This document shows, piece by piece, positions 54,934 to 63,363 of a DNA stretch of 64,000 bases. A program made the position numbers and the translations under genes. Every line of letters begins with the position of its first letter. Within the stretch, counting starts at the first letter, position 1. The notes below the pieces were generated by a model, which made no database searches, was not told the origin of the DNA, and saw only the letters and a program-made list of their open reading frames with translations. The stretch is from an uncultured Lachnospiraceae bacterium (GTDB taxonomy: Bacteria; Bacillota_A; Clostridia; Lachnospirales; Lachnospiraceae), in NCBI GenBank assembly GCA_951801245.1, contig CATOMC010000004.1, positions 54,817 to 118,816 on the forward strand, in the 5' to 3' direction.

Positions 54934-55400
54934 ATGATGTCAAAGAAGAAAAACCGCCCACAAGGGCATTACTGTAAAATATGCGGCGAATACAAGGCAA
55001 ATGAAAAATTTTCCGGGAAAGGCCACGCAGCCCATATCTGTAAAGCCTGTTCCCGTTTAAGCGTTGCGGAAAAAGCGGCGGCAATGGATATGAACCGGTT
55101 GATGAGTTTCCCAATGAGGCGGCTTTCAGAGGGTGAGAAGAAATGGCTGACTGCCGTTTTACCATTGACCGGAAAAGCCGTGTCCTTACAATGACGGATT
55201 TTCAAGCAGAGGGCGAGGGGCAGTCTGTCACGTTGGAGGGCAGTCTGTCATGGCGGGTGCAGGTGGAGTACACGAACCATACAGAGCAGGATGTTTGCAG
55301 CTATGAGGATTACCTGCCAGATCGTCCAGAAGAATTGTATCTTTCCCTGTTGGAATATTTTGAGTCGGAGGATGAAGTCTTTTCACCTTTGAAGATATAA
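54934..55400 (+). pseudogene. Zinc-ribbon protein broken by internal deletion and frameshift
   Basis: ATG 54934 behind ACGGAGGAA starts KKKNRPQGHYCKICGEYKAN and GHAAHICKACSRL, two CxxC pairs of a zinc ribbon, and continues MDMNRLMSFPMRRLSEGEKK. The frame then changes near 55140; FTIDRKSRVLTMTDFQAEGE and DRPEELYLSLLEYFES run on in another frame to 55400. I recall longer accessory-element proteins with both parts in one chain, so this looks like one gene with its middle lost. A reading as two short genes is possible but less likely. Confidence 0.6.
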
Positions 55401-55678
55401 ATATTTCTGATATTCCTGACGGAGTTTATGTTGGTGAATATAACGTGGATTTTATATATGCCAAAGTGGAAGTTACCATACAAAATGGAGAAATCGCAAA
55501 TATTAACATTTTGGAGCACAGGCATGAACGTGGAAAGACCGCAGAAGTTATCACTGACAGTATAGTTGATGAACAGAAAATAGATGTAGATGCAATATCA
55601 GGCGCAACAAATTCAAGCATTGTCATAAAAAAAGCGGTTGAGAACGCTTTGAAAAGCAGGAAATTGACCACTTTTTGA
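55399..55678 (+). pseudogene. Truncated FMN-binding-domain protein
   Basis: The frame DINISDIPDGVYVGEYNVDF, VEVTIQNGEIANINILEH, DAISGATNSSIVIKKAVENA is a complete FMN_bind domain; the SGAT motif carries the threonine that takes up FMN covalently in this family. It lacks the usual membrane anchor and starts directly at the end of the preceding broken gene. The only start codon inside the frame is GTG 55445, which would cut into the domain. It appears to be a fusion scar. Confidence 0.65.
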
Positions 55679-55716
55679 CTTTTTGATTGTATCATATTCT
55701 GGAAGAGGAGGTTATT

Positions 55717-55749
55717 ATGGCATACAAAATACTCATTGTTGATGTCTAA
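55717..55749 (+). pseudogene. First codons of a deleted response regulator
   Basis: GGAAGAGGAGG and ATG 55717 open the frame MAYKILIVDV followed by TAA. MAYKILIVDD is a typical response-regulator start, so only the ribosome site and the first nine or ten codons remain of a deleted gene. Confidence 0.55.
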
Positions 55750-55773
55750 TGTAGCAAACTTTCATACAACATA

Positions 55774-55801
55774 AGCCTTCCGGTTTTGGAGGGCTATTTT
55801 T
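55774..55801 (+). terminator. Terminator behind the truncated regulator
   Basis: AGCCTTCC (55774-55781) pairs with GGAGGGCT (55788-55795) with one G-U-type mismatch, followed by ATTTTT. Confidence 0.7.
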
Positions 55802-55962
55802 CTGTAATGCTTGAAAAAGGCTTATTTTGTGGGCTTTCCAGCATTGCTCATTATTTCTTTCCCCACATTTTCAAGAATAGATTCACACAGATTTTCAGCG
55901 GCTCCGGGCAATGTGGCGGCCTTGCTCAGAAAAATGCACACCCTTTGAAAAATCAGAGAACA
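55802..55962. other. Gene-free stretch with a possible minus-strand remnant
   Basis: No intact gene is seen. On the minus strand an open frame reads LSKAATLPGAAENLCESILE through NAGKPTK and stops at 55822-55824; it has no start or ribosome site and may be the end of a lost gene. Confidence 0.3.
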
Positions 55963-56035
55963 AGAAAATATCCGCTAAAAAGTATCTCACGTCGCATTCC
56001 ATAAAAAAGATACTTTTTCGCGGATATTATTTTCT
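55963..56035. terminator. Long AT-rich hairpin, bidirectional terminator
   Basis: The 25-base arm at 55963-55987 (AGAAAATATCCGC to AAAAAGTATCT) pairs with 56008-56035 (AGATACTTTTT to TATTATTTTCT) with few mismatches and a 20-nt loop. It lies 10 bases beyond the stop of the minus-strand gene at 56045 and is T-rich on both sides. Confidence 0.8.
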
Positions 56036-56044
56036 GTTTCTGGA

Positions 56045-56356
56045 TTATACTTCGTCCCTTGGTGACGCTGCCTGAATATTTGAGAATGGCAATCTCTCAA
56101 TAAACAGTTCCTTGCAGTCGGAAAAACCGAGCTGGTAGGCAAGCATCCCATAGCGTGAGCCAAGGGCGTTCTGTTCGCTTACATAGCGGTCAATAAGAAG
56201 CCGGGTTTCTTTTGGTAGTTGCAGGGCTTCCAGCTTATTGGAATATATGTCAGATTTGCGGATAATCTCCTGATACTCCATGTCGCTGTTTGTGATCTCA
56301 TTCATAACACTGTTCATCCTCAGCCCCATTAACTGATCTAATATTGTTTTTTTCAT
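56045..56356 (-). CDS. Small DUF6809-like protein
   Basis: The 103-residue protein begins MKKTILDQLMGLRMNSVM and contains KLEALQLPKETRLLIDRYVS and LGSRYGMLAYQLGFSDCKEL, a helical pattern similar to small DUF6809-type proteins common in Clostridia and their mobile elements. I am not sure of the family and no function is known. AAGGAGGG before ATG 56356 is clear. It is the last of four minus-strand genes and ends at a long hairpin. Unlike its three neighbours it lacks the shared leader. Confidence 0.7.
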   Translation of the reverse strand: MKKTILDQLMGLRMNSVMNEITNSDMEYQEIIRKSDIYSNKLEALQLPKETRLLIDRYVSEQNALGSRYGMLAYQLGFSDCKELFIERLPFSNIQAASPRDEV

Positions 56357-56477
56357 GGTAAATCCCTCCTTGTGGCGTTGGATGTTATACCTGTATTGCA
56401 GTGGTGACAAGGGGAAAAGGGTGGATCAGGGACAATTTTGCGCCAGCCGTTTCCTTCCTGAGGCTGGCGCTTTGGTC

Positions 56478-56978
56478 TTATTTCTTTGCCTCCCGGTTTG
56501 CCTGAAAGTAGTAGCCGTGGCCGGTTTTCTCGTCGTCAAAGGTAAATTCGCATATCTCGTTATACATGGAGCCGTCCCAATTAAGGATGTAGATTTGATA
56601 GTCGTATGCAAAGCTCCTGATCGTCTCCGCCTCGCAGGGCGTGTCGGTTCCGTCCATAGTCCAGTCATAGCGGTGCAGTTTGGTCTCCTCATATTCTTCC
56701 AGCTCGTCGGTGTAGTAATATCTGGTGAAGCCTTCCGAGGTCTCGTAGCTTTCCAGCTTCCGGCGAAGATGTTTGGTAGTGATGTATTCGGCGGAATGGC
56801 ATTTCTTTTCTCCGTTTACTACCGTGTAGCTGTAGCTTTCGGGGCGGTACGGGTTTTCAAATTCCTCGCGGTCAATATCCATTGAGATGCCTTTCCTTTC
56901 GCATTGTTTCCGTACATACCGGAGAAACTGTGCAAGGGTTACATTGTTACGCTGTATTTCGATAGAATAGTCTGCCAT
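56478..56978 (-). CDS. Accessory-element protein of unknown function
   Basis: The 166-residue product (MADYSIEIQRNNVTLAQFLR, KQCERKGISMDIDREEFENP, ending GHGYYFQANREAKK) is hydrophilic and rich in Glu and Tyr, without signal peptide or known motif. AAGGAGG precedes ATG 56978. It is the first of three genes that carry the shared TTGCTT-N16-TAAGCT leader, here at 57013-57050. The family is unknown to me; similar context suggests mobile-element cargo. Confidence 0.75.
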   Translation of the reverse strand: MADYSIEIQRNNVTLAQFLRYVRKQCERKGISMDIDREEFENPYRPESYSYTVVNGEKKCHSAEYITTKHLRRKLESYETSEGFTRYYYTDELEEYEETKLHRYDWTMDGTDTPCEAETIRSFAYDYQIYILNWDGSMYNEICEFTFDDEKTGHGYYFQANREAKK

Positions 56979-57012
56979 GGTGTGTGCCTCCTTAAAGATA
57001 TGTTTTGTTTGC

Positions 57013-57050
57013 TGTGAGTGACAGCTTACGCACCACCGGTCAAAAAGCAA
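57013..57050 (-). promoter_or_regulatory. Shared promoter/leader, copy 1
   Basis: On the minus strand TTGCTT (57050-57045), exactly 16 nt, TAAGCT (57028-57023) and the tail GTCACTCACA lie 45 bases before ATG 56978. Copies 2 and 3 upstream of the next two genes have the same hexamers and spacing. Confidence 0.7.
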
Positions 57051-57134
57051 GCTCAAAATGCTTAAAAGATATCTTTATTTTTGGAATATCCGGGCAGCAA
57101 AAAGCCCCGCCGGGGCGGGGCCGCTGTGGCTGTA

Positions 57135-57797
57135 TTATGCTGCGGTGAAGCCCTGTGCCGCGAGTGCTTCCACCAATGCTTTGTTCTCCCTGCCTGTGAG
57201 GGTTCCGTCTCTGCCAATGGTATAGTCCTCTACTACGAAGGCATAAGTCGGAGCTTTCATGTATTTAGGTTCTGCGCCTATGAAGCTGCCTACTGCCGCC
57301 GCCAGTTCTTTCCTGCGCGGGCCGGTTACATTATAGAGGATTTCCATTGTGCCGGATTCCTCGGCGGGTGCTGTTTCCCCGGCGGGCTCGTTAGCCTCTG
57401 CTGTGGATTCCTCTGCCGTTTCACTCTCGGTGGCGGTATCCTCTGCTTTTTCCGGTTCAGCCGCCGGGGCTTCTGGCATGGCCGCTGGGGCATTTTCCTC
57501 CGGCGTGGGTTCCTGCTCTGCGGCGGCTTTCGCTGCCTCTTTGGCTGCTGTTTTCTTGGCCCTCGTCATTTTTGCCCTTGCCTCAGGGAATACCTCCGGC
57601 AGTACGCCCGGTGCGTAGCTGATTTCAAAAGTGATTTTGCCGTCTGCAGGTACGTTGAAATGGAAGTCCAGCATTTCCGCCTCTTTGAGCGTATCCGGCA
57701 GGTCAATGTTCTTGTACCGTTTTAATTCCTTGCTCTCTACCATAAGGCATACCGGAACCGCGTCCCTCAATTTTGCTGTGATTTTTCCTGTCTTCAT
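57135..57797 (-). CDS. Conserved accessory-element protein with Ala/Glu/Pro linker
   Basis: The 220-residue protein has an N-terminal domain (KITAKLRDAVPVCLMVESKE, NIDLPDTLKEAEMLDFHFNV), an Ala/Glu/Pro-rich disordered linker (about 80-150) and a C-terminal domain (ILYNVTGPRRKELAAAVGSF, YAFVVEDYTIGRDGTLTG, ALAAQGFTAA). The C-terminal pattern resembles proteins annotated as virulence-related in Clostridial conjugative elements, a label without known function. AAAGGTGG precedes ATG 57797. Its GC-rich coding differs from the AT-rich flanks. Confidence 0.75.
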   Translation of the reverse strand: MKTGKITAKLRDAVPVCLMVESKELKRYKNIDLPDTLKEAEMLDFHFNVPADGKITFEISYAPGVLPEVFPEARAKMTRAKKTAAKEAAKAAAEQEPTPEENAPAAMPEAPAAEPEKAEDTATESETAEESTAEANEPAGETAPAEESGTMEILYNVTGPRRKELAAAVGSFIGAEPKYMKAPTYAFVVEDYTIGRDGTLTGRENKALVEALAAQGFTAA

Positions 57798-57846
57798 AAT
57801 GTTTTCCACCTTTCGTATTTTGATATTTTGTACTGGCTGCTTGCCT

Positions 57847-57884
57847 TGTGAGTGACAGCTTATACATTTTGGTGGTGAAAGCAA
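57847..57884 (-). promoter_or_regulatory. Shared promoter/leader, copy 2
   Basis: Minus strand TTGCTT (57884-57879), 16 nt, TAAGCT (57862-57857) and GTCACTCACA, the same tail as copy 1, lie about 60 bases before ATG 57797. Confidence 0.7.
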
Positions 57885-57995
57885 GCCTTTTTTCAAAGAA
57901 ATTTCTCTTTTTTATCCGCATAAAAGCAACGAAAAAGGCCAGCCGTTGGAGATTGGCTGGCTGATGGTAAATGCGCCCGACAGGCGCATGGTATG

Positions 57996-58607
57996 TTATG
58001 CCCTCTCGAAAGGCTCTCCGCAGTCCCCGCAGATCACATTTACCTCGCGGGTTGCCCGGATAATGGTGCCGCAGCAGGGGCAGACATATTTGATACTGCG
58101 GTTGATGGATTTTGTGCTTCCGCCCTTGGAGCCTCCCTCTATCTGCAGGCGGCTGGCATGGATACCGGCCTCGCCCAAGGTAGCCTTGATCCAAGCCTCT
58201 GCCTCCGGGGCCAGCGTCGTAACCGTCCAGCCGTATTTTGCATGTTTCTCTATATGTAGTCCATGGGCCTCGGCGGTTGCCTTGAATTTCATGTTGTGGT
58301 AATAGCCGTTGTTGCTTACGTCCTGAATGTCATGTTCCAGATCATAGAGGTGGGCCATTTCATGTAAGAGAGTAGCGGCCAGCTCCGTCATGGGGCGGTC
58401 AAGATACTCGGCGCAGAGATTGATCTCCCGGTATTTCTCCTCGTCGGCATTCCAGATTTCGTGGATACTGCACCAGCCGTATGCGCCGCGCCCGCCGTCC
58501 GGGGATACGGTGATGGCCGGGCGGGTAAGTTCCATATTATAAAAATGCTCGTTGAACAGGTCAAACATTTCCTCGGTTTTCTTTACGATTTCGGATATCT
58601 GTAACAT
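57996..58607 (-). CDS. SprT-like zinc metallopeptidase with zinc ribbon
   Basis: The 203-residue protein has a SprT-like domain with HEMAH at residues 82-86 (zinc and catalysis) and, from about 177, a zinc ribbon (VCPCCGTII and VICGDCGEPF). SprT-like proteins cleave DNA-protein crosslinks or are encoded on mobile elements with unknown targets. AAGGAGG precedes ATG 58607. It is transcribed away from the iteron-like array and the divergent LytTR genes. Confidence 0.85.
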   Translation of the reverse strand: MLQISEIVKKTEEMFDLFNEHFYNMELTRPAITVSPDGGRGAYGWCSIHEIWNADEEKYREINLCAEYLDRPMTELAATLLHEMAHLYDLEHDIQDVSNNGYYHNMKFKATAEAHGLHIEKHAKYGWTVTTLAPEAEAWIKATLGEAGIHASRLQIEGGSKGGSTKSINRSIKYVCPCCGTIIRATREVNVICGDCGEPFERA

Positions 58608-58640
58608 AGCTGTGTCCTCCTTAAAATTATCTTTTAATTC

Positions 58641-58678
58641 TGTGTGACACAGCTTACATATTTTTAGTGTGAAAGCAA
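58641..58678 (-). promoter_or_regulatory. Shared promoter/leader, copy 3
   Basis: Minus strand TTGCTT (58678-58673), 16 nt, TAAGCT (58656-58651) and the variant tail GTGTCACACA lie 44 bases before ATG 58607. Confidence 0.7.
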
Positions 58679-58890
58679 GCTCAAAAGGATTATTTTTGTA
58701 TGAAAACTGGGAGAGATAGGGCTTGCGTGTAGAGGTGTCTTAGTTTCCGGCAGATACGGACACGGAAAGCCTAGAAAGCCCGTAAATCCGCCACTTTCGG
58801 CACTACATAGGTTAGAAATTTACATTATTTCCGTGTGCTTTTGAGGGTATTTTTACATTGGTAAGAGTACGAACGGTTGTTCTGGGATTG

Positions 58891-59090
58891 TTTTGCCTGA
58901 TAGTTTGTACTCGTAGGCAAAACTCGGATATTATCACGGAAACTCGGATACTCGCACGGAAACTGCTGTACTATCAGGCAAAAGTCGATACTATCAGGCA
59001 AAACCCTTATACGAACACGGAAACTGCCTGTGAGTTTTCGTGATAATATAAGGGTTTCCGTGATTGTATAAGCAGTTTTCGTGATAGTAT
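58891..59090. repeat. Iteron-like array of ten 16-bp units at 20-21 bp spacing
   Basis: Six direct units start at 58907, 58928, 58948, 58968, 58988 and 59009 (examples ATATTATCACGGAAAC and ATACTATCAGGCAAAA). Inverted units lie at 58891-58906, 59034-59049, 59054-59069 and 59075-59090 (for example GTTTCCGTGATTGTAT). Two core types alternate: CACGGAAAC/CACGAAAAC and AGGCAAAA. A degenerate unit lies at 58753-58770. The 20-21 bp spacing puts all units on one face of the helix, as for Rep iterons or arrays of dimeric regulators. No coding frame explains it. Confidence 0.85.
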
Positions 59091-59464
59091 ATGAGTAAAG
59101 CAGTAAAAATTGAATGGAATATTGAAAAAGAGGGGAAAGGGCTGTTTCGGCAGTCCTTTTTCTCATGTCTTAAGATTTCATAATTCATTTCTTTACATTT
59201 CAAATATCACAGATATTTATAATTGGTTCAGAAAATAATAAGTTGGAAAGTGGAGGAAGCAGAGTTAATATGCTTATACGGTGGTTTTCGTATCGGCTAT
59301 GTGCCACTTTGTGAGACAGTCGCTCCTCTGTGGGAAGTATATTTCACACCTAAAATGCAACAATTGGCACCTTGCAATCAGTTGGTAATACGCCAGCGCC
59401 GATATAATAAATGATCATGGGTATGTATTTTTCATGTCTCAGCTTTAGAAAGGAAAAAAGATTT
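59091..59464. other. Gene-free leader before the LytTR regulator
   Basis: This AT-rich stretch between the iteron-like array and the regulator start holds no gene with a ribosome site. No confident promoter was identified. Confidence 0.4.
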
Positions 59465-60187
59465 ATGAGGATAGCAGTTTGTGATGATGACCGACCAATA
59501 CGGGAAGAACTGATCCGTCTGATACAAAAGCAGGTATCTGATGCGGATATCATGGAGTATCAGTCGGGGGAAAAACTGCTCCATGCCGGAGTGGACTTTG
59601 ACATTTATTTTCTTGATATTGAGATGGATACGGTGTCTGGCATGGAGCTGGCAAGGCATATCCGGGAACGGGAAGAAACCGGCAGGAAAAGGAGCATTAT
59701 TATCTTTGTGACAGGGTATCGGGAATACATGGGAGAAGCCTTTGATGTCAATGCTTTCCACTATCTACTGAAACCTTTAGACGAGAAGAAATTTGCAGAG
59801 GTTTTTGCACGTGCATGGAAAGAGGCATCTGTTTTTTGCGAACAGGAAAAGAGGTACATCATGGTGAAAAGCCTTGGCGCGCAGCAGCGATTACTGCTAA
59901 AGGAAATTTACTATATCGAGAGCCGCAATAAAAAAGTCATTATCCATACAACGGACAAAACGCTGGAAGTCTACGGGAAGATGGAAGAACTGGAAAACAG
60001 GCTGGGCAGTACCTTTTACCGCTGTCACAGATGTTATCTTGTAAACATGGAGAAGATATCTGCTTACAGTGCAGATAACATACAGGTCACGAACGGGGAT
60101 AACCTGCTACTAGCAAGGACGAAATATTCTGATTTTATCAAAGCCTATATGCGGTATATCAAAAATGGAGGGATTGTCAATGTTTGA
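59465..60187 (+). CDS. LytTR-family response regulator
   Basis: The 240-residue protein has a receiver domain (MRIAVCDDDRPIREEL, phosphoacceptor D51 in FLDIEMD, lysine in YLLKPLDEKKF) and a C-terminal LytTR DNA-binding domain (IYYIESRNKKVIIHT, FYRCHRCYLVNMEKI). This is the AgrA/VirR type, which binds direct repeats spaced by about two helical turns. AAAGGAAAAA precedes ATG 59465. It overlaps the kinase gene by eight bases. The array upstream, with 20-21 bp periodicity, is a candidate binding region. Confidence 0.92.
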   Translation: MRIAVCDDDRPIREELIRLIQKQVSDADIMEYQSGEKLLHAGVDFDIYFLDIEMDTVSGMELARHIREREETGRKRSIIIFVTGYREYMGEAFDVNAFHYLLKPLDEKKFAEVFARAWKEASVFCEQEKRYIMVKSLGAQQRLLLKEIYYIESRNKKVIIHTTDKTLEVYGKMEELENRLGSTFYRCHRCYLVNMEKISAYSADNIQVTNGDNLLLARTKYSDFIKAYMRYIKNGGIVNV

Positions 60188-61622
60188 TCTGTTGTCTCCG
60201 GTTGCTATGTATTTAGCCGATAGTGTATTGAGTGTCATCTATACATGGAGTTTTTTGAAAGAAAAGTATGAGAAAAGGGGAATGCCAGTGATCTGGGCTG
60301 GCGTTTATTTTCTGATCCAGATACTGGTATTTATCATAGGAGCCGACAGATTTCCGGTGGGTAAAGCTGCAGGGATCATCTTAAATATCTGTATTCTGCT
60401 GTTTATGCAGTCATTTTTCTTCCAAAAAGAGATGCAAAAACAATTATTTGTTACCTTTAGTTTCGTGGCGGGGACAGAGACGGTGAAATATATGTTCATT
60501 ACGTTTGATATTGTGGTAAGCGGATGGGGGAATCAGATCTTAGATCATCTGCTCGCAGAGAATATCTTAAATACGGTAGAAAGAACTGAGAATGTGATAA
60601 CGATCTACAATGCCGTAATGACGGTCTTATGCGTAGTGTTCTATATCTTGTTATTGTCCGGATATCTGTTTTTCATAAGAAGGAAGTATATAAAAAAGGA
60701 TTATCCGTTACAGACACATGAGAATGTTTTTCTGATCTTGCCCTGCATTGCTGCGTTGTGTATCTCGGTCATCATAAGACTGATTATCACTTCGCTGAAC
60801 AATGGGTTGGGGATCGTTATTTATAAGGCTGTTCCGCCAATCCGTTTTTGGCTGCCTGTTGTCGGTGCCTTAATGCTTTCTGACATCATTGCCAGTATCG
60901 TATTGTTTCAGAAACAGATACAGTACCATGAAGAGACAGGGAAACGTGCCCTGTTGGAAAACCAAGTCCGGCAGATGCAGAAGGAGATCGCAGAGATACA
61001 GGATATCTATACCGATATGCGGGGATTCCGGCATGATATGAGAAGCCATTTAGCCAATATTTCTCTGCTTGTCAAAGGAGCGGTAGGCTCCGTGAAGGAA
61101 GAACTGGAAAGCTATGTCGGGAAAATGGAGGAAACGGTCAGCAGAATAGACTTTATTTATCAGACGGGAAATCCGATCACGGACATTATCATCCACCAGA
61201 AAAGTCAGGAAGCAGAGAAGAAACAGATACGGTTTCAGGTTGATTTTGTCTATCCGCATAAGCTACCGATTGATGTTTATGATATCGCGGTCATTTTGAA
61301 TAATGCGTTGGAAAACGCCATAGAAGCGTGCGGCATGGTAGAGAGTGAAAAACAGATCAGCTTACGTTCCTATGTAAAAGGCAGCCTGTTCTTTATAGAG
61401 GTTGAGAATGATTTCGCAGGAGACATTGTTATGGAAAAAGAAAGCGGGCTGCCGGTCAGCAGCAAGGAAAACGGAAAGCTGCATGGGATTGGCATATCCA
61501 ACATACAAAGATGCGCGAAGAAATATATGGGTGATATTGACATAGCGGTTTCTAATACAGGCGGCAGGAAGAAATTCAGCCTTACCGTTATGATGAATGG
61601 AAAGGCAGGGGCGGACGGTTAA
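60180..61622 (+). CDS. GHKL-type sensor histidine kinase (AgrC-like)
   Basis: The 480-residue kinase has six or seven membrane segments in residues 1-250 and a cytoplasmic part with the histidine in GFRHDMRSHLANI, N box NNALENAIEAC and G box GIGISNIQRC. This is the layout of AgrC-like kinases that often sense peptides. GGAGGG before ATG 60180 sets the start, inside the 3' end of the regulator gene. The downstream short frame at 61629 could encode a peptide, but no AgrB-type processing protein is present in the window. Confidence 0.92.
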   Translation: MFDLLSPVAMYLADSVLSVIYTWSFLKEKYEKRGMPVIWAGVYFLIQILVFIIGADRFPVGKAAGIILNICILLFMQSFFFQKEMQKQLFVTFSFVAGTETVKYMFITFDIVVSGWGNQILDHLLAENILNTVERTENVITIYNAVMTVLCVVFYILLLSGYLFFIRRKYIKKDYPLQTHENVFLILPCIAALCISVIIRLIITSLNNGLGIVIYKAVPPIRFWLPVVGALMLSDIIASIVLFQKQIQYHEETGKRALLENQVRQMQKEIAEIQDIYTDMRGFRHDMRSHLANISLLVKGAVGSVKEELESYVGKMEETVSRIDFIYQTGNPITDIIIHQKSQEAEKKQIRFQVDFVYPHKLPIDVYDIAVILNNALENAIEACGMVESEKQISLRSYVKGSLFFIEVENDFAGDIVMEKESGLPVSSKENGKLHGIGISNIQRCAKKYMGDIDIAVSNTGGRKKFSLTVMMNGKAGADG

Positions 61623-61628
61623 TAGCAC

Positions 61629-61676
61629 ATGGGAAACTTCGCGCCCAAAACGGAGCAGTTCGCGCCGAATCTATGA
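61629..61676 (+). other. Possible 15-residue peptide frame with internal repeat
   Basis: ATG 61629 opens MGNFAPKTEQFAPNL before TGA, seven bases after the kinase stop. The peptide contains NFAPK and QFAPN, encoded by TTCGCGCC repeats at 61638 and 61659, 21 bases apart. The ribosome site is poor. It may be a tandem repeat in DNA rather than a gene. Confidence 0.25.
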
Positions 61677-61734
61677 AAAAATTCTGTCAAACGGCGATAA
61701 AGAAAGTAAGAATACTTTTCAGAAGGAGGATGGG

Positions 61735-62682
61735 ATGATAAACACAGCTTTTACAGGTGCAAACGGGGTGCGACAGCCATTGCTGCATTCTAAAAAAACA
61801 AATAAAATAGCAAGACAGCGGGCGGCGCTCCAACTTTTGTCGGGAACAGGAAGCGGCAGAAGCAGGGACAGCTTCACTATTTCCAGTGAAGCGAGGAAGT
61901 TTTCAAGAGAACGAATAGCGGCGTTGGTTGATAAAAGTGCAAATGTATCTAAGGGAGAGCTATCCTATTATTTCGCAAACTATAATGATCCAAGCGCTAT
62001 TCTGGATGCAATCAACTTTGGGACGCATGTGGAGTGTGGATATAATCCTGAGTTTAAGGATTATGGCGTTATGCGTTTTGATTATAACGGAAGCAGCCAG
62101 GTAGTGCCAAATTATGCAGTGCCGAAGATCAACGCGAACTCCTTGCCCGGTATTCACGCTGAAAACAATTGTCTGGTTCTGAAGAATAAAAGCTATTACG
62201 CATGGACTACGTCAAACGGTAGTCGATACGCATGGGCGGTTAATAACGGAATGATTGGGTATGCACGATCGGAATCAATGTTAGCAGAGAATAATGGTAC
62301 AAATTATAAGTCGGAAATGAGAAAAGCGAGTGGTATTTTAGCGGCATTGGCACAGGGAGAGAGTCTGTGGGACGTATTACATAGCAGGAAGGAAGTTTTA
62401 GCGACTTGTGAGAAAGTCGGAATCACGCCGGGTTTCTTTTCCATAGATGCGGGCGCAGGGAAGCATACCTATATCCTGCGGGAATCCGGTGCCGTGATAA
62501 ATGTGGATAATAACATTGCACGGTGGAATAGCATAAATTGGATAGGGAGCGGTTATAAAGAGGGGGACACATTTTCCATTTATGGCAATGAATATGCAAT
62601 AGACAGCAGCGGACACATCCATGTTTCAGTGGATGATACGTTTACGTCAACAGAGGTTAAATATCCAAAGCGTACCATGTAA
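61735..62682 (+). CDS. Unknown protein downstream of the LytTR/GHKL pair
   Basis: The 315-residue protein begins MINTAFTGANGVRQPLLHSK, has a Lys/Arg-rich helical first third including SRDSFTISSEARKFSRERIA, and then a domain with YAWTTSNGSRYAWAVNNGMI and GFFSIDAGAGKHTYILRESG. There is no signal peptide. The motif DSFTISSEA resembles phrases in some Lachnospiraceae surface- or flagellum-associated small proteins, but I assign no family. AGAAGGAGG precedes ATG 61735. It lies in the same direction as the kinase and is probably cotranscribed. Confidence 0.72.
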   Translation: MINTAFTGANGVRQPLLHSKKTNKIARQRAALQLLSGTGSGRSRDSFTISSEARKFSRERIAALVDKSANVSKGELSYYFANYNDPSAILDAINFGTHVECGYNPEFKDYGVMRFDYNGSSQVVPNYAVPKINANSLPGIHAENNCLVLKNKSYYAWTTSNGSRYAWAVNNGMIGYARSESMLAENNGTNYKSEMRKASGILAALAQGESLWDVLHSRKEVLATCEKVGITPGFFSIDAGAGKHTYILRESGAVINVDNNIARWNSINWIGSGYKEGDTFSIYGNEYAIDSSGHIHVSVDDTFTSTEVKYPKRTM

Positions 62683-62721
62683 CAAATCGAAACGATTGTT
62701 TTAGCTGGGAGAGGAGAAAGT

Positions 62722-63363
62722 ATGATGCAGGTAGGATTAAATAATTATCAGTTTGGAAACAGCAATGTGATGGAGAAAGCAGACACTAAAAAGGCGGAGA
62801 AAAAAGCAGAGGACAAATACGCCAGTGTATCAGCGTATGAAGCTTACTTAAAGGATAAGTACCCTTGCTTGACGGCTCCTAATTATAAGGTAACGATATC
62901 ACCGGCATATTTGGAGAAATGTATCAAAGATCCCAAAGAAGCTGAAGGGCTGGAAAAGAGTTTGGAGCATTTACCGATTAGTCATCAGAATATGACTGCA
63001 TCATGGAAAGCTTTAGGAGCGAGAGTTGTAAATGAGCAGTGGATTTATGATGAAAACGGGAATTGCGGTGGTAGCCCTAGTATGTATGTTACCAACAGCA
63101 ATTTATCATCCAGTGGCAGTGTTCAGGATAAAATATCGGAGAAAAAAGGTCAGAGAAAAACACCTTCACCGCAGGAGCATTACGAAAAGAGAAAACTTTT
63201 AAGAGAGCAGTTTGAGGAGAGGCTGGCGGAGAAGGAGTATCTGAAAGATCAGTTGGAAGAAAAAGAGATGAAGGATGAATTACTGGAAAAAAGCATTTTA
63301 TCAAAGGAGCGGAATGCAGGCAGATTCATTGAGCGGTATGAAGCCAATATTATGACATCTTAA
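62722..63363 (+). CDS. Coiled-coil protein, possibly distant DUF6033 relative
   Basis: The 213-residue protein has AYEAYLKDKYPCLTAPNYKV, TISPAYLEKCIKDPKEAEGL and WIYDENGNCGGSPSMYV, followed by a long charged helix (about 150-205). The stretch around YKVTISPAYLE matches YSVLIDPEELE of the DUF6033-like protein at 21403, suggesting distant relation; this is by eye only. GGAGAGGAG precedes ATG 62722. It follows the 61735 gene by 39 bases, and neither has membrane segments. Confidence 0.75.
   Translation: MMQVGLNNYQFGNSNVMEKADTKKAEKKAEDKYASVSAYEAYLKDKYPCLTAPNYKVTISPAYLEKCIKDPKEAEGLEKSLEHLPISHQNMTASWKALGARVVNEQWIYDENGNCGGSPSMYVTNSNLSSSGSVQDKISEKKGQRKTPSPQEHYEKRKLLREQFEERLAEKEYLKDQLEEKEMKDELLEKSILSKERNAGRFIERYEANIMTS

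What the first reader, a model, noticed from the sequence alone, without database searches (positions are those of the whole stretch)
58891..59090. Array of about ten iteron-like repeats between divergent SprT-like and LytTR genes
Six direct and four inverted 16-bp units repeat every 20-21 bp, all on one helical face, with two alternating cores (CACGGAAAC and AGGCAAAA). It resembles plasmid or conjugative-element iterons but has no Rep gene in view. It is also compatible with a multi-site platform for the LytTR regulator encoded downstream, whose family binds repeats about two turns apart. An origin or transfer region of an integrated element, or a new regulator platform, are the main options.
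Basis: partly seen in the sequence, partly recalled or inferred. Interest (0 to 1): 0.75.

Follow-up and report, generated by a model that had tools for sequence, protein, structure and literature searches.

The report
Iteron array of a dispersed prophage-docking element
The ten short repeats look like one end of a non-coding DNA element that recurs at several places in Lachnospiraceae genomes, often beside prophage ends and accessory genes, rather than a plasmid origin or a control site of the neighbouring regulator gene.

Summary
The array is real: ten 16-bp units at 58891-59090, six direct and four inverted, 20-21 bp apart within each run. It is tied to neither neighbour: 0 of 46 SprT loci carry it (8 hold too little upstream DNA to tell), and LytTR homologues in five genomes lack it. 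It is the right part of a larger element: a conserved block (58704-58890) plus an array of fixed signature (one inverted unit, a direct run, an inverted run). I read 34 block copies of at least 80 bp, the window's included; 28 have the array; up to five per genome, at unrelated loci. Fuller copies also have a left end that starts in the ppdK 3' end, then another array. The nearest ORF before the block points towards it in 22 of 24 cargo-bearing copies. Serine-integrase prophage ends abut the left end and, in one contig, the block. Best reading: a dispersed non-autonomous element used as docking platform by prophages and defence-type cargo, its iterons bound by an unidentified protein. Mobiliser, exact ends, empty site and binding protein were not found.

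The parts
58704..58890 (+). Conserved block directly left of the array: a 27-bp edge (two alleles known; the window has the GGGAG.. one), then GGTGTC...
   Evidence: 33 further copies of at least 80 bp in 18 genomes (my genome count); 29 sequences (L125 left out as a repeat of L120) align over 160 columns with 88% mean column identity; edge alleles
58891..58906 (-). Array unit 1 (inverted)
58907..58922 (+). Array unit 2
58928..58943 (+). Array unit 3
58948..58963 (+). Array unit 4
58968..58983 (+). Array unit 5
58988..59003 (+). Array unit 6
59009..59024 (+). Array unit 7
59034..59049 (-). Array unit 8 (inverted)
59054..59069 (-). Array unit 9 (inverted)
59075..59090 (-). Array unit 10 (inverted)
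59091..59165 (+). Right tail of the element, with a terminator-like hairpin at about 59135-59163 (hairpin read by eye)
   Evidence: tail conserved in other copies, hairpin sequence differs between loci
55740..58701 (-). SprT module abutting the block: SprT-like 57996-58607 and ORFs 57135-57896, 56478-57056, 56045-56410. The last matches a gene at prophage ends that I call DUF6809 from recall (Pfam gave no match). The module occurs elsewhere without the array
59411..61622 (+). Right-hand neighbours, LytTR response regulator and GHKL kinase; not part of the element

Best explanation
The array is the right part of a dispersed, multi-copy, non-coding DNA element of Lachnospiraceae with the layout: left end (starting at the last codons of ppdK, with one unit and a terminator-like hairpin) - left array - cargo or nothing - block - right array. 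SHOWN: block and array conserved at unrelated loci, several per genome; the fixed orientation signature of the right array; nearest genes pointing towards the block; prophage ends with serine integrases against the left end and, in one viral contig, against the block. INFERRED: the element spreads as a non-autonomous unit; its edges act as attachment (attB-like) sites for serine-integrase prophages, whose end genes become cargo; the iterons bind a protein in trans that pairs or organises the ends for recombination. In the window only the right half is left, with a SprT module, found elsewhere without the array, abutting the block in the unusual orientation.
For: Strong block/array matches (at least 142 bits) in 8 of 397 genomes of one family (22 of 397 at E <= 0.001, the others short or weak) and block matches in 12 of 37 genomes of one genus; up to five copies of at least 80 bp in one genome (G273, G410). 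Array beside 28 of 34 block copies, with the full signature in 24 of the 28 and the same order with the first or last part missing in 4. Of 39 distinct left-end tips read, 23 have a shared prophage-type end sequence outside and 7 have ppdK (my count); a serine-integrase match lies beyond it in 10 loci. Viral contigs: L187 = holin, amidase, two serine integrases, then block and array; serine integrases run into the left end in L188, L190, L191 (holin and amidase checked by profile in L187 only, plus a holin before the block in L188). Other block neighbours: holin (L131), tape-measure fragment (L126). Nearest ORF towards the block in 22 of 24. Same right flank with different cargo (L065, L124) and like cargo with different right flank (L123, L124).
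Against: No recombinase or transposase among the cargo proteins scanned; no empty site or target duplication found for the element; right edge blurred by varying terminators. The left end begins in ppdK sequence, so part of it may be a copied native 3' region; not every left-end tip has an array (L160, L161, L164 do not). Copies come from related genomes and some share flanks or cargo. The window lacks the left end and its neighbouring gene points away from the block. No binding protein is known. The window's two closest SprT relatives (L004, L005) end too soon upstream to test the junction.
Confidence: 0.5

Rival explanations
1. A chromosomal regulatory or structural platform: a nucleoid-type or silencing protein binds arrays around foreign genes; the spread is a by-product of prophage traffic and homologous recombination.
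For: Block and array lie next to prophage ends and accessory genes; conserved DNA without clear coding period and with almost no covariation; a changed block in L076, L130, L131, L132, L134, L135 goes with a second unit type, clearest in L076 and by eye in L130, L131, L134, L135, as if one protein read both.
Against: Copies without cargo lie beside ordinary genes (L133, L073); no one regulator is consistently adjacent.
Confidence: 0.2
2. Cis-acting prophage sequence (end region, origin or packaging site) left behind by decayed prophages.
For: Prophage ends abut left end and block; viral contigs carry them.
Against: The six further stretches of viral records read hold no array apart from a left-end one in L197, including the first 14 kb of the G447 record; ppdK-linked copies without phage genes between (L133, L073); no blastn match of the window stretch among 50,697 phage records.
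Confidence: 0.18
3. Iterons of a plasmid or conjugative-element replication origin.
For: Unit length, spacing and tandem layout resemble iterons (recalled).
Against: No Rep family among neighbours and cargo proteins scanned; no blastn match in 72,556 plasmid records; several copies per genome at unrelated loci.
Confidence: 0.06
4. Operator array of the neighbouring LytTR regulator.
For: Adjacent gene; LytTR proteins bind repeats about two turns apart (recalled).
Against: None of the ten units fits the recalled consensus; LytTR-like gene within 1.5 kb to the right of only 2 of 34 block copies; homologues in five genomes lack the array.
Confidence: 0.04

Closest known systems
Integron gene cassettes (features recalled)
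   Same: Genes in one orientation followed by a conserved non-coding block; cargo differs between copies
   Different: No integrase among the cargo proteins scanned; almost no covariation in the block (one pair); many 16-bp units on both sides
Tn7-like transposons and their defence cargo (PMC8649781: search listing and start of abstract seen)
   Same: Repeats near both ends, some defence-type cargo, ppdK 3' end as a site
   Different: No TGT...ACA ends seen; TniQ absent from the copy-rich G407 and G410, though present in the copy-rich G273 and G406; a Tn7-like element with other ends sits at ppdK in G273 and G441
MITE-like non-autonomous elements (recalled)
   Same: Short, non-coding, dispersed, several copies per genome
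   Different: Long arrays of fixed signature; no terminal inverted repeat or target duplication recognised
Serine-integrase prophage attachment sites
   Same: Prophage ends with serine integrases abut fixed edges
   Different: The site lies on a dispersed element with iteron arrays, not in one fixed host gene
Plasmid iterons (recalled)
   Same: 16-bp units at about 20-21 bp spacing
   Different: No Rep gene seen; dispersed copies

Membership tests
LytTR operator | Units match the LytTR binding consensus (recalled) | tested here: not met
   No match within 58891-59090; single matches at 58869 and 59378
LytTR operator | Array conserved upstream of LytTR relatives | tested here: not met
   0 of 5 genomes with a LytTR homologue at 66-71% DNA identity
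Plasmid iteron origin | Rep gene next to the iterons | tested here: not met
   No Rep family among the window neighbours and cargo proteins scanned; not every ORF was scanned
Integron cassette | Recombination site folding as a structured strand | tested here: not met
   9 and 17 predicted pairs on the two strands, one in all with a two-sided change
Integron cassette | Genes in one direction followed by the site | tested here: met
   22 of 24
Integron cassette | IntI-type integrase in the genome | not tested
   No genome-wide search was made
Tn7-like transposon | TniQ machinery in genomes that carry the block | tested here: inconclusive
   TniQ in 2 of the 12 block-positive and 2 of the 25 other genomes of the genus; absent from G407 and G410, present in G273 and G406
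Serine-integrase prophage attachment site | Prophage end with serine integrase directly at the edge | tested here: met
   Left end in L188, L190, L191; block in L187
Serine-integrase prophage attachment site | attL, attR and unoccupied site define the crossover | tested here: inconclusive
   attL could not be placed
Structured RNA | Rfam match or covariation | tested here: not met
   No match at gathering score for the array region;

The most novel reading that the evidence does not exclude
A new class of mobile platform in Lachnospiraceae: a cassette framed by two iteron arrays that a trans-acting protein pairs, used to exchange defence-type genes in one orientation and to receive serine-integrase prophages at two fixed edges, without any integrase of its own.
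Probability: 0.25. Interest if true: 0.8.

Novelty: new variant of a known kind. Interest (0 to 1): 0.55.

Why it matters
It would explain how gut Lachnospiraceae collect prophages and accessory genes at recurring non-coding sites, and gives a sequence marker for finding such cargo. It also warns against reading iteron-like arrays as origins or operators from a single locus.

Tried and rejected
Considered and rejected or downgraded for the reasons given: LytTR operator, plasmid origin, structured RNA, coding block (mean variability 0.14, 0.09, 0.13 by codon position). Mobilisation by the TniQ-bearing Tn7-like element is unlikely in G407 and G410 but not excluded in G273 and G406. Linkage of array and SprT module was rejected: 0 of 46 loci (type-1 units at 13/16 or better), of which 8 (L004, L005, L022, L032, L038, L040, L046, L047) hold too little upstream DNA. 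Led nowhere: an attL alignment, an empty site through the MATE gene or the TetR locus. The L068/L120 comparison places a right edge at a terminator but gives no target duplication. Literature searches (one search listed 12 of 30) showed no title or abstract start about such an element; no paper was opened. Copies sharing flank or cargo (L120/L125, L121/L138, L069/L127, L065/L124) mean that counts overstate independent events. From the 41 left-end rows, L143 (repeat of L120) and L142 (same place as L068) were dropped to give 39.

Full report
Observation. The array is present as described: ten 16-bp units, six direct and four inverted, 20-21 bp apart inside each run, with spacings of 16 and 25 at the strand switches. 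In 30 Markov controls no 210-bp stretch had more than two matrix hits, against ten here (the matrix includes the window's units).

Neighbours. Pfam gives SprT-like on the left and a LytTR response regulator with a GHKL kinase on the right. One scan of species genomes found 46 loci with a relative of the SprT gene. Homology to them covers a module at about 55740-58701, and BLAST pieces show a leader shared by more than one of its genes. None of the 46 carries the array, but 8 of them, including the two closest (L004, L005), end too soon upstream to tell. LytTR homologues at 66-71% DNA identity in five of 397 genomes have no array.

The element. Blastn of 58700-59420 in 397 genomes of one family gave 22 with a match at E <= 0.001, of which 8 are strong (at least 142 bits), several with more than one copy. 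A 37-genome genus gave 12 block-positive genomes. Copies of at least 80 bp reach five per genome (G273, G410). Aligned copies show a conserved block with a sharp edge at GGTGTC and two alleles of the 27 bp before it. Of 34 block copies (33 from 18 genomes, plus the window), 28 have an array directly to the right; 24 of these show one inverted unit, a direct run and an inverted run, and 4 lack the first or last part of that order. A second unit type (ATACNATTTGGCAAAA, read from L076) goes with a changed block in six copies. The block shows no clear coding period and no supported RNA fold.

The left end. Fuller copies have a left sequence of about 177 bp that starts at the last codons of ppdK, holds one unit and a terminator-like hairpin, and is followed by an array. 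In the genus, 35 of 37 genomes matched a ppdK-plus-left-end query; 30 of 34 ppdK matches stop at query base 411-454 (the gene ends at 421) and 4 run on into the left end, while 31 of 48 other left-end matches begin at base 394-401, that is at the ppdK tail (my counts from its list). Copies occur with no cargo (L069, L070, L073, L127, L133), with 1.9-4.2 kb between left end and block (11 loci: L065, L067, L080, L120, L121, L123, L125, L128, L130, L134, L138), or as short left ends with two array clusters (L068, L072, L079, L084 and others).

Cargo. The nearest ORF of at least 120 aa within 1.5 kb before the block points towards it in 22 of 24 copies; the exceptions are the window (SprT) and L137; 5 empty copies and 5 without such an ORF were left out (ORFs are mechanical, two cargo pairs are duplicates). 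In the 11 loci with both ends all 11 point that way. PADLOC matched 4 of 10 cargo proteins at E up to 0.01, including NsnA and an effector nuclease model. Pfam matched 4 of the 10 proteins (GmrSD_N, HATPase, methyltransferase, metallophosphatase with HD). None of these is a transposase or recombinase.

Prophages. Of 39 distinct left-end tips, 23 have the same prophage-type sequence outside, 7 ppdK, 2 a second prophage-type end, 7 other sequence (my count). A serine-integrase match lies beyond it in ten loci. In viral contigs serine integrases run into the left end (L188, L190, L191) or into the block (L187, with amidase and holin). Six further stretches of viral records hold no array of their own except a left-end one. 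As far as this shows, the arrays lie on the host side of the prophage ends.

A different element. A Tn7-like transposon (Mu-transpos_C, TniB, TniQ) with other ends sits directly after ppdK in G273 and G441; in G406 TniQ lies about 3.9 kb from the ppdK end. TniQ is present in 4 of 37 genomes: G273 and G406, which are block-positive, and G419 and G441, which are not. It is absent from block-rich G407 and G410.

Mechanism. Shown: recurrence, layout, orientation bias, prophage adjacency. Inferred: mobility of the unit, use of its edges as attachment sites, binding of the units by a protein in trans. Not found: enzyme, exact ends, empty site. In the window only block and right array remain, with the SprT module abutting the block.

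Verdict. Real and conserved; not supported as origin or LytTR operator; best filed as a new variant of a non-autonomous element and prophage docking site, with moderate confidence.

Noticed in passing
L159:5677-10876, L164:6708-11910: Tn7-like transposon (TnsB, TnsC, TniQ homologues; end TGTCGTAGGGC) directly downstream of ppdK; L134 has a short derivative flanked by what reads by eye as a TTTGA duplication.
   Followed up: partly
window 55740-58701: SprT module with a leader of about 140 bp shared by more than one of its genes; relatives of the SprT gene in 46 loci of named Clostridia and other Bacillota records, in varying surroundings; looks mobile on its own.
   Followed up: partly
window 55400-55740: By eye, a broken FMN-binding-type ORF and the first codons of a response regulator stop where the SprT module begins, which suggests an insertion or deletion scar.
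   Followed up: no
right of the arrays in L069, L070, L081, L127, L129, L130: A second dispersed motif (CCCGAAAAATAGTCGTTTCGTGCCATCGGGTG and variants) recurs just beyond the right end in several copies.
   Followed up: no
window 59411-63363; L076, L130, L148: LytTR/GHKL pairs beside DUF6033-type genes (Pfam-checked only for window 62722-63363, others by eye) recur in these genomes, some within 20 kb of arrays.
   Followed up: no
L187:556-3274, L190:2573-5706: Prophages with two serine integrases in tandem at the end that meets the element.
   Followed up: partly
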